Origin: Verticillium longisporum
Lineage: Eukaryota > Ascomycota > Sordariomycetes > Glomerellales > Plectosphaerellaceae
DNA length: 64,000 bases
Direction of reading: 5' to 3'
Assembly (NCBI GenBank): GCA_019188255.1
Contig: JAETXT010000013.1
Span: 620,001-684,000, forward strand
Shown: piece by piece, positions 23,095 through 25,344 of the stretch
How positions within the stretch are numbered: position 1 is the stretch's first letter
Layout of the letters: each line of letters starts with the position of its first letter
Translations under genes and position numbers: made by a program
Notes under the pieces: model-generated
Databases searched by the model: none
What the model saw: only the letters and a program-made list of their open reading frames with translations
Told to the model about the DNA's origin: nothing

Positions 23095-25344
23095 TCATAG
23101 ATATCGGGACATGATGTCCTTCAGCTTCGGGATGGGAATGCCTTCAACCTTCCTCCCCTTGAAACCCTCCATGGAATCTGCCATGACGATTGAGTTGTAA
23201 ATCGCCTCTTCCGTAGCGTCCGCCGCTGCTTCAAAAAGTCCATTGATGCCTGCATCATCGACAGCCTCGAGCTTCAGCGCCTTTGCCTTGTACGAGTCAA
23301 AGGCATCCGAGCCGTCCATTGCCAGCGTTTGCACGGGAACATGGTTTCCCGTCGAAAAGGCAAGAAAAAGATCGCCGGATGGGTTGTGTCCGTAGCCGCC
23401 GACGCGGGAGAAGCCGACGGTTGCGCGCTTAGCGAGACGCTCGCACTGTGTTGGCGTGAGAGGAGCATCGGTGGCAATGATCACGATGATACTGCCGTCT
23501 TTGCGCTCCTTGTGGGCGGCGAGGTGGGCTTGCCAGTTGCGGTACTGATCGAGGACTTGGGATTGAATTTGGGCGTCTGCGGCGGATTGGGGATCATCAG
23601 CATCATCAGCAGCATCACCAGCATCATTAGCATCACCAGCATCACCAGCATCACCAGCATCACCAGCATCAGCATCACCAGCATCATCAGCATCGTCGTC
23701 GTCGTCATCGTCGTTCTCCTCGTCGTCATCGAGTTCCATTCCGGAGCCTTCTTCTGCTGGACGTTCATGGTTCTGGTTCTCCTGTATCTGCGGGGCATCG
23801 ACTGATGACTGCACAGGTCCGTGGCCCTGCTGTGGTTGCTCCTGACGCGGTGGCTGCTGCTGTTCCTGTCGCTGTCGAGCTTGCTGCTCGTGTTGAAGCT
23901 GCTGCTGCTCTTGTTGAAGCTGTTGCTGCTCTTGTTGAAGCTGCTGCTGCTCTTGTTGACGCTCCTGCTGACGACGTTGTTGTTGTTGCTCCTGAAACAA
24001 CATATGCTCCTGCTCCTGCTGAATGATCTGCTGTCGCTGTTGCTCTATGATCTGTTGCTGACGCCGCTCTTCTTGCTGCATTTGGTGTTCCCTCTGTTGT
24101 GTCTGATGGTGCTGTTGCTGTTGTGCATTGAAGGATAATTGTCCCGGTGGCAGTGGCACTCGCGGTAACGATTGCTGCTGCTGCGGCGACTGTTCGTCCC
24201 TTGGAAGAAGCGCCGCCTGCTCCTGATCTCGCTGATACAGAAGGATCCGTCCCACAGGAACACCACCAATGCGAAGGTGCGCCGCCTTGCCATAGTTGGC
24301 CTGGACGAGTACACCGACGGTGTATGGTTTGGGCTCGCCGTCGGCATCCTGGCCTGGGACCACGCGTGAAGCCGAACCAGTGCCACCCTTCCAGTGATGG
24401 CAGATCATGCCTGTGCCGCCGCCAGAGTTACCCTCCTTGACTGGCGCATCACTGGCCTCGTTGATGCTCCGTACAATGTCTGTCGATTTGACGGACATTT
24501 TGCAAATGTCGCTGAGGTAGCCGTCAAAGGTCTCGGCGACGACGGGTAACAGGAAGGACTTGAGCTCGCCGCCCTCAGTGGAATAGTGCTCGACAGCATA
24601 TTCGTACACGCCCCTGACGGCGTCACCGACGGCCAACGTGTTGGTGATGATGATGGGCGAGTTAAGGAGACCCGTCTCGGCGATCCAATGAGAGCCGGTC
24701 ATCTCTCCGGCACCATTGAAGCGGAAGATGCCAGCATGACAAGCCTCTGAGAACCACTCCTTCCGAGGCAGAATGCAGGTGACGCCGGTGTTGACAGTCC
24801 ACATGGGGTGCAACGAGTGCGTCGAGACGAGGACGCCAGGCACGTCGGTCAAGGAATTCTTGGGGCCTGGGGGCCAGGCACCGAGGAAAAGGTTGGGGAG
24901 GACAGCACGTATGCGGACGCGGGTGGAGGCGGCCTTCCTAGCCTCTGCACGGCTTCTCGCCGAGTCACGAGGCTCGAAGCTCAGGGGCGGAGGATGATTG
25001 TGCACGGAGTGGCCCGGTACATGGAGCCACTCTGTGCCGGTGTGCAGGAGGACGCTGGACCATTTACAGTCCGTCTTTGTAGATTTGGCATTTCGGATAC
25101 CACGGCTCTGGGAGGGTTTGGGGCGGCCACCACGGTCGCAGACAAGGAGCACGCGATAGATCTCGCCATTGGGGCGTGTCTTGGTTCTCAGGATGGTAAC
25201 TTTGAAGCCGTAACTTGCGGTATGCTTCTTTAGGGCCTTAAGGAGATCCAACCGGTCGAAGCTAGTCAGAGGAGGATCTGGGTTCGGGCAGCTGACAGAT
25301 GTCGGCGGCCCCGGCGGAGAATCATGTGTTGTTGCATCCTCCAT
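23095..25344 (-). CDS. Fusion of FAR1-type DNA-binding domain with DmpA/P1-family (S58) self-processing peptidase
   Basis: One uninterrupted frame of 749 aa; ATG at 25342-25344. Residues 28-120 match the fungal FAR1/WRKY-GCM1-like zinc domain derived from Mutator transposases: LLVCDRGG (C69), KTDCKW (C93) and GHSVHNH (H115, H117). Residues about 142-749 match the S58 aminopeptidase family: RIRAVLPNLFLG, NSLTDVPGVLV, EGNSGGGTGMICHHWKGG, YTVGVLVQANYG, GVPVGR, then DGSIIVIIATDAPLTP. In the family the chain cuts itself before the Ser of GSII, which becomes the N-terminal nucleophile (here Gly617-Ser618, Ser codon 23491-23493). Between GVPVGR and DGSII, normally a short linker, lie about 250 residues: Gln-rich 380-510 and Asp/Ala-rich 536-590. 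No signal peptide. Family membership is clear. DNA binding and self-cleavage are inferred. Confidence 0.9.
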   Translation of the reverse strand: MEDATTHDSPPGPPTSVSCPNPDPPLTSFDRLDLLKALKKHTASYGFKVTILRTKTRPNGEIYRVLLVCDRGGRPKPSQSRGIRNAKSTKTDCKWSSVLLHTGTEWLHVPGHSVHNHPPPLSFEPRDSARSRAEARKAASTRVRIRAVLPNLFLGAWPPGPKNSLTDVPGVLVSTHSLHPMWTVNTGVTCILPRKEWFSEACHAGIFRFNGAGEMTGSHWIAETGLLNSPIIITNTLAVGDAVRGVYEYAVEHYSTEGGELKSFLLPVVAETFDGYLSDICKMSVKSTDIVRSINEASDAPVKEGNSGGGTGMICHHWKGGTGSASRVVPGQDADGEPKPYTVGVLVQANYGKAAHLRIGGVPVGRILLYQRDQEQAALLPRDEQSPQQQQSLPRVPLPPGQLSFNAQQQQHHQTQQREHQMQQEERRQQQIIEQQRQQIIQQEQEHMLFQEQQQQRRQQERQQEQQQLQQEQQQLQQEQQQLQHEQQARQRQEQQQPPRQEQPQQGHGPVQSSVDAPQIQENQNHERPAEEGSGMELDDDEENDDDDDDDADDAGDADAGDAGDAGDAGDANDAGDAADDADDPQSAADAQIQSQVLDQYRNWQAHLAAHKERKDGSIIVIIATDAPLTPTQCERLAKRATVGFSRVGGYGHNPSGDLFLAFSTGNHVPVQTLAMDGSDAFDSYKAKALKLEAVDDAGINGLFEAAADATEEAIYNSIVMADSMEGFKGRKVEGIPIPKLKDIMSRYL
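23575..23739 (-). repeat. Asp/Gly/Ala low-complexity coding repeat
   Basis: Tandem 9-bp units (ATCACCAGC on the plus strand) encode repeated Gly-Asp-Ala, following a run of Asp codons (GTC on the plus strand). It lies inside the S58 fusion gene. Confidence 0.85.
23815..24192 (-). repeat. Gln-rich low-complexity coding repeat
   Basis: CAG/CAA-rich sequence encoding Gln runs with interspersed Glu, Arg and Leu, including tandem units of the LQQEQQQ type. Predicted extended helix or coiled coil, inside the S58 fusion gene. Confidence 0.85.

What the first reader, a model, noticed from the sequence alone, without database searches (positions are those of the whole stretch)
23095..25344. DNA-binding domain fused to a self-processing peptidase in one intronless frame
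The N-terminal FAR1-type zinc domain (C69, C93, H115, H117) comes from Mutator-like transposases. The rest is a DmpA/P1-family S58 peptidase with all main family blocks. The junction (HNHPPPL...STRVRIRAVLPNLFLG) has no stop, intron or internal Met that would separate two genes. S58 enzymes are normally stand-alone enzymes of about 370-400 residues. A nucleic-acid-binding module on a peptidase that cuts itself could give a transcription factor or chromatin protein released or switched by autoproteolysis. I know of no described example, though I cannot search.
Basis: partly seen in the sequence, partly recalled or inferred. Interest (0 to 1): 0.88.

Follow-up and report, generated by a model that had tools for sequence, protein, structure and literature searches.

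The report
DNA-binding zinc domain fused to peptidase
In Verticillium and its fungal relatives, one unbroken gene joins a zinc domain of a type that likely binds DNA to a complete aminopeptidase-family domain predicted to cut itself; the two parts have stayed together while the species diverged, so this enzyme would probably work while attached to DNA, a combination we could not find described.

Summary

The fusion is not a local accident. Ten proteins carry the whole domain, both homeologs here are fused, and no other S58 gene was found in this genome. Colletotrichum, in the sister clade, has stand-alone S58. One origin fits the tree (12 rows, SH-aLRT 99). Both halves show purifying selection.

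New here: the same ten proteins carry a 90-296-residue Q-rich/acidic linker directly before the cleavage site, against 14-52 (median 31) in 208 others. After cleavage it would be a free tail on the DNA-binding chain.

Corrections: release of the DNA-binding part by self-cutting is unlikely, because the cut lies 500 residues downstream and DmpA and BapA are octamers. The FAR1 part groups, weakly, with host FAR1 genes rather than the MULE-linked one. DNA binding, cleavage and nuclear location are untested.

The parts
23095..25344 (-). Whole coding frame, 749 codons plus stop; in-frame TAA directly before ATG
24982..25269 (-). FAR1 (WRKY-GCM1-type) zinc domain, residues 26-121, basic (pI 10.4); helix plus four strands in the model
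   Evidence: Pfam 28.2 bits for residues 1-121; hhalign E 1.4e-17; model and match to Aft2-DNA; pI
25138..25140 (-). Cys69, first predicted zinc ligand
   Evidence: conserved in 10 of 10 proteins that reach this far
25066..25068 (-). Cys93, second predicted zinc ligand
   Evidence: 10 of 10
24994..25002 (-). His115-Asn-His117, third and fourth predicted zinc ligands
   Evidence: 11 of 11
24919..24981 (-). Junction, residues 122-142, partly helical in the model; no Met, no stop
24235..24918 (-). S58 alpha-chain core, residues 143-370
   Evidence: PF03576 stretch 163-374; structural alignment starts at 142-143
23494..24234 (-). Expanded linker, residues 371-617: Q-rich (30% Q in 371-612), predicted long helix 406-495, then acidic low-complexity stretch
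23545..23709 (-). Acidic stretch, residues 546-600 (40% D+E, no K/R), overlapping a 9-bp repeat whose copy number differs from V. dahliae P0002
23491..23496 (-). Gly617-Ser618, predicted self-cleavage bond and nucleophile (DmpA Gly249-Ser250)
   Evidence: alignment; Ser618 in 221 of 222 aligned proteins, gap in 1
23098..23493 (-). S58 beta chain, residues 618-749

Best explanation
This is one gene, kept as a fusion in the Plectosphaerellaceae, in which a FAR1/WRKY-GCM1 zinc domain predicted to bind DNA is joined to a complete S58 (DmpA-type) peptidase predicted to cut itself at Gly617-Ser618, so that the enzyme would work while held on DNA. Shown by calls: the unbroken frame, both domain matches, the conserved metal-ligand and active-site residues, the shared expanded linker, and an excess of synonymous over nonsynonymous change in both halves. 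Predicted: the fold of both domains and the cleavage bond. Inferred: one fusion event on the stem of the family; after cleavage, an alpha chain made of the FAR1 domain, the alpha core and a free Q-rich/acidic tail of about 245 residues, still held to the beta chain; an alpha4-beta4 octamer as in DmpA and BapA, with four DNA-binding domains per particle. The most likely role is a DNA-tethered enzyme that also regulates transcription: FAR1 picks the sites, the tail acts on transcription, and the peptidase acts locally or senses a peptide ligand.
Confidence: 0.5

Rival explanations
1. The FAR1 domain is a protein-protein or structural add-on that no longer binds DNA, and the gene is an ordinary cytosolic S58 aminopeptidase with a decorated N-terminus and linker.
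For: The only S58 genes found in the genome are the fused ones, so a housekeeping role of the enzyme, if any, must be carried by the fusion; catalytic columns are conserved; zinc domains can be reused for protein contacts (general knowledge).
Against: The domain is conserved at 61% mean identity with all four ligand positions and a basic pI of 10.4, dN/dS 0.13; the best fold match is an Aft2-DNA complex.
Confidence: 0.3
2. The protein is mainly a transcription factor (a stronger form of the best explanation, overlapping with it): the S58 core has become a scaffold and ligand sensor, self-cleavage frees the Q-rich/acidic tail of the alpha chain as an activation domain, and turnover of peptides is secondary.
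For: Order of parts: DNA-binding domain first, Q-rich/acidic tail last on the mature alpha chain; linker expansion and FAR1 occur in the same clade; two other FAR1-domain frames of the genome, L007 and L012, also carry long Q-rich stretches; Ser656 is replaced in Sodiomyces.
Against: The other active-site columns checked are intact; the linker is poorly conserved (36%).
Confidence: 0.25
3. One reading: self-cleavage releases the DNA-binding part from the peptidase.
For: A self-cleavage bond is predicted at 617-618.
Against: The bond lies about 500 residues after FAR1, on the far side of the alpha core; DmpA and BapA are octameric (passage), so the chains would remain together. I did not look for a second cleavage site.
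Confidence: 0.05
4. Two genes read together by chance, or a gene-model artefact.
For: Other long S58 models exist that look like merged models, each from one entry (P0042, P0056, P0095).
Against: FAR1-S58 recurs in 10 proteins over deep divergence and without stop in both homeologs; the window reading comes from raw DNA, not from a model.
Confidence: 0.03

Closest known systems
DmpA (1b65) and BapA (3n2w), S58/P1 family beta-aminopeptidases
   Different: Those are stand-alone with a short linker; here a FAR1 domain is added in front and 252 residues separate the two halves
Aft1/Aft2 iron-regulon transcription factors of yeast (4lmg)
   Different: Aft proteins have no enzyme domain (recalled); sequence identity 21% over 76 residues
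Fungal FAR1-domain genes: VipA of Aspergillus nidulans; L008/9 and L012-14 of this genome
   Same: Fungal FAR1-like domain; VipA is reported to associate with the hemB promoter (passage in PMC6000157); L008/9 and L012-14 are 26-35% identical to the fusion domains
   Different: L008/9 and L012-14 are not fused to a peptidase (one search finds S58 only at the two fused loci); VipA itself was not compared
FHY3/FAR1 family of plants
   Same: FAR1 DNA-binding domain of the WRKY-GCM1 superfamily (passage in PMC6000157)
   Different: Most are followed by MULE and SWIM domains; none here
VdMULE7 (VDAG_04885) of Verticillium dahliae, nitrilase-MULE fusion
   Same: Enzyme joined in frame to a Mutator-derived domain in the same genus (passages in PMC3441728)
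   Different: A truncated catalytic MULE domain from an insertion, no corresponding ESTs according to the paper; not a DNA-binding domain
PutA and BirA of bacteria (recalled, no call)
   Same: Work-alike: enzyme and DNA-binding domain in one chain, the enzyme acting as sensor for a regulator
   Different: Unrelated domains and chemistry; no self-cleavage

Membership tests
Peptidase family S58 (DmpA/BapA) | Pfam S58 profile over both chains | tested here: met
   385.5 bits, two stretches
Peptidase family S58 (DmpA/BapA) | Gly-Ser cleavage bond with Ser nucleophile at the start of the beta chain | tested here: met
   Gly617-Ser618 aligned to DmpA Gly249-Ser250; S618 in 221 of 222 proteins. Sequence only; cleavage itself not tested
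Peptidase family S58 (DmpA/BapA) | alpha-beta-beta-alpha fold of the family | tested here: met
Peptidase family S58 (DmpA/BapA) | Self-cleavage, octamer and aminopeptidase activity | not testable with these tools
   Needs purified protein
FAR1 domain (PF03101, WRKY-GCM1 superfamily) | Score above the curated cut-off of 28.1 bits | tested here: inconclusive
   22.8 in the whole protein, 27.8 in residues 1-139, 28.2 in residues 1-121; P0004 carries it precomputed
FAR1 domain (PF03101, WRKY-GCM1 superfamily) | Two Cys and HxH zinc ligands aligned with other FAR1 domains | tested here: met
   Columns aligned; invariant in the family
FAR1 domain (PF03101, WRKY-GCM1 superfamily) | Helix plus four-stranded sheet of the WRKY-GCM1 type | tested here: met
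FAR1 domain (PF03101, WRKY-GCM1 superfamily) | Binds DNA | not testable with these tools
   No binding data
Mutator-like (MULE) transposase | MULE catalytic domain PF10551 in the protein | tested here: not met
   hmmscan of the whole protein at E <= 1 gives only S58 and FAR1
Transcription factor | Nuclear protein that binds promoters and changes transcription | not testable with these tools
   Only domain order and composition speak for it

The most novel reading that the evidence does not exclude
A self-maturing enzyme turned gene regulator: self-cleavage at Gly617-Ser618 makes an octamer carrying four FAR1 DNA-binding domains and four free Q-rich/acidic tails, so that one Ntn-hydrolase particle binds several DNA sites, acts on transcription, and reads or trims peptides in the nucleus. 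It would be the first S58 peptidase, and perhaps the first Ntn-hydrolase, that is also a DNA-binding regulator.
Probability: 0.25. Interest if true: 0.85.

Novelty: new variant of a known kind. Interest (0 to 1): 0.62.

Why it matters
A domain fusion that survives deep divergence marks a functional link. Here the link is between DNA binding and a peptidase family whose natural role in fungi is, as far as I know, unsettled; the fusion suggests that, at least in one fungal family, it acts in the nucleus. It also adds a case of a FAR1/WRKY-GCM1 domain recruited onto an enzyme. In this genome the fused gene is the only S58 gene found, present as two homeologs, and a haploid relative should carry one, so a gene removal there can test the role. 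The precomputed Pfam annotation shows FAR1 in only one (P0004) of the nine database proteins that carry it (P0002-P0010), as scores sit near the cut-off; this may be why it was overlooked.

Tried and rejected
Chance frame or gene-model merge: rejected. Direct capture from a MULE transposase: the MULE-linked FAR1 (L005/6) is no closer than host FAR1 genes (26-31% against 26-35% to the fusion proteins). Support is low, the L007 branch is very long, and only this genome's FAR1 genes were compared, so the donor stays open. I first took the FAR1 and S58 trees to agree throughout; they do not (see evidence against). Fusion inherited by all Glomerellales: rejected for Colletotrichum, whose block P0122-P0164 (43 proteins: 41 named Colletotrichum, 2 unnamed) has 8 or 15 residues before the core. 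P0011, labelled Colletotrichum sojae, is nested inside the fusion clade although that species also has P0138; contamination, transfer and mislabelling were not told apart. P0011 begins inside the FAR1 domain and lacks the linker, perhaps a gene-model effect (not tested). P0091 starts inside S58 and says nothing on FAR1. P0005, labelled V. albo-atrum, is 73% identical to the window protein, while P0004 with the same label is 79%, so one label may be wrong.

A PDB sequence search with the FAR1 profile found no relative (best E 0.81). Foldseek with the FAR1 model found nothing at E <= 0.001. NCBIfam matches were all far below their cut-offs. The FAR1-region search of P0006 returned 7 proteins, all fusions; stand-alone FAR1 proteins under about 321 aa were outside its length range. 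The two S58 searches list only the best 120 of 2657 and of 6654 hits, so a fusion lower down is not excluded.

Novelty was searched and 73 of the open-licence library. No paper held both 'FAR1' and 'peptidase S58'; the other lists were capped (for example 12 of 208 rows) and only listings and abstract starts were seen. Subscription papers and preprints are not covered. Babu 2006 and the VipA paper were not held; I know them only from citations and recall. All papers cited were seen as passages only.

Full report
What is there. The frame 23095-25344 on the minus strand codes for 749 residues and begins right after an in-frame TAA. A frame that long is not expected by chance (about 5e-8 per window by base composition). 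The genome is 72,013,526 bases in 16 contigs with two copies of the gene. This fits V. longisporum PD589, reported as 72.0 Mb in 16 pseudochromosomes (passage in PMC8406199). The window copy is given as 100% identical (rounded; residue 5 differs) to V. dahliae P0002 over residues 1-380, consistent with the D parent. The copy on contig C9 matches P0003 of V. longisporum in length (715 aa) and closely in sequence.

Evolution. In two searches (best 120 listed of 2657 and of 6654 hits) the proteins with a whole FAR1 domain head the list. There are ten: the window protein and P0002-P0010. Named sources are V. dahliae, V. longisporum, V. albo-atrum (two entries), Sodiomyces alcalophilus and Plectosphaerella plurivora; the three species looked up are Plectosphaerellaceae; P0006, P0007 and P0010 are unnamed. 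Two more rows (P0011, P0091) are partial at the N-terminus. None of the 210 other proteins has a FAR1-like C-C-HxH set before the core; one, P0082, has an HxH alone. In a quick tree of 145 of the 222 proteins the 12 fusion rows form one clade (99), sister to 9 Colletotrichum-type rows (97). This matches the order Glomerellales, with Plectosphaerellaceae and Glomerellaceae. One fusion event after these families split is the simplest reading. A FAR1 tree of 19 rows (14 different, 110 columns) also puts the fused domains in one clade (99). The two trees differ at one deep point: FAR1 joins P0006/P0007 to the Verticillium and Sodiomyces rows (86), S58 joins them to P0009/P0010 (99). I put this down to the short FAR1 alignment and its long outgroup branch, but it is not proved. 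In this genome the nearest kin of the domain are host FAR1 genes rather than the MULE-linked one, with support 89 only.

Selection. Between the two homeologs dN/dS is 0.13 for residues 26-125 (7 synonymous, 3 nonsynonymous changes), 0.17 for the alpha core, 0.25 for beta and 0.23 for the linker. The tail at residues 2-25 is not constrained (0 synonymous, 6 nonsynonymous). Numbers are small, but FAR1 looks as constrained as the enzyme. Mean pairwise identity over 8 members is 61% for FAR1, 53% for the junction, 73% alpha, 36% linker, 68% beta.

The linker. Between Gly365 and Ser618 lie 252 residues here. In 11 of 12 fusion rows the count is 90-296 (P0011: 23); in 208 other proteins it is 14-52, median 31; 2 of 222 proteins lacked an anchor and were dropped. 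It is Q-rich (30% Q in 371-612) with an acidic stretch at 546-600. The model shows a helix at 406-495, mostly at high pLDDT, a low-confidence part at 500-579, and a helix at 585-614 running into the cleavage bond. Expanded linker and FAR1 occur in the same clade. After cleavage the linker would be the free C-terminal tail of the chain that carries FAR1.

How it likely works. The peptidase would mature by cutting Gly617-Ser618. Because the cut is after the alpha core, FAR1 stays on the enzyme. DmpA and BapA are described as octameric (passage in PMC10531186), and a reconstructed DmpA-type enzyme was reported to cut at Gly-Ser into alpha and beta chains (passages in PMC9570944). A particle with four FAR1 domains is thus the natural inference (the alpha4-beta4 make-up is recalled). 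I commit to a DNA-tethered aminopeptidase with a regulatory tail (0.5). Against it stand the lack of any experiment, the borderline FAR1 scores, the variable linker, and the Ser656-to-Ala difference in Sodiomyces. That position corresponds to DmpA Ser288 (alignment), which I recall as a catalytic-centre residue.

Novelty. No paper in the open-licence library held both FAR1 and peptidase S58; the listed rows of related searches showed nothing of the kind (lists capped). The parts are known, the combination appears not to be. I therefore call it a new variant of a known kind. Enzyme and DNA-binding fusions that act as regulators exist in bacteria (PutA, BirA; recalled).

Noticed in passing
window 22694-22790 (+): A tRNA found by Rfam (45.3 bits) that ARAGORN in bacterial mode did not list; 97 nt long, perhaps with an intron or a long variable arm.
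   Followed up: no
window 23586-23717: A 9-bp repeat coding for Gly-Asp-Ala units; the window protein (749 aa) and V. dahliae P0002 (737 aa) differ in its copy number, so it could serve as a length marker.
   Followed up: partly
L012, L013, L014 (contigs C1, C10, C10): Three identical FAR1 stretches; one lies in a 543-aa frame with a long Q-rich tail, two in frames of only 151 aa. Duplication with frame differences, or an intron, might explain it.
   Followed up: partly
L005 and L006 (contig C1): Two identical FAR1 frames, each 354 bp from a partial MULE transposase match in a 97-aa frame (L018, L019): two copies of a Mutator-like element, its transposase frame split or spliced; observed only.
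   Followed up: no
window 15697-19365 (+) and 15850-18813 (-): Long overlapping frames on opposite strands; the plus one carries FAD-binding and pyruvate-ferredoxin oxidoreductase domains, as in the sulfite reductase flavoprotein subunit (name recalled). The minus one was not scanned and is probably the shadow frame.
   Followed up: partly
window 36000-39155 (-): A 1051-aa frame with 96-bp (32-residue) repeats and no Pfam match at E <= 0.01, perhaps a long coiled coil.
   Followed up: no
P0011 and P0138: Colletotrichum sojae is credited with two S58 proteins, one nested in the Plectosphaerellaceae fusion clade; possible contamination of that assembly or a transfer.
   Followed up: partly
P0008, residue aligned to window Ser656: The Sodiomyces fusion protein has Ala at a position that is Ser in 218 of 222 aligned proteins (2 gaps, 1 Cys).
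   Followed up: no
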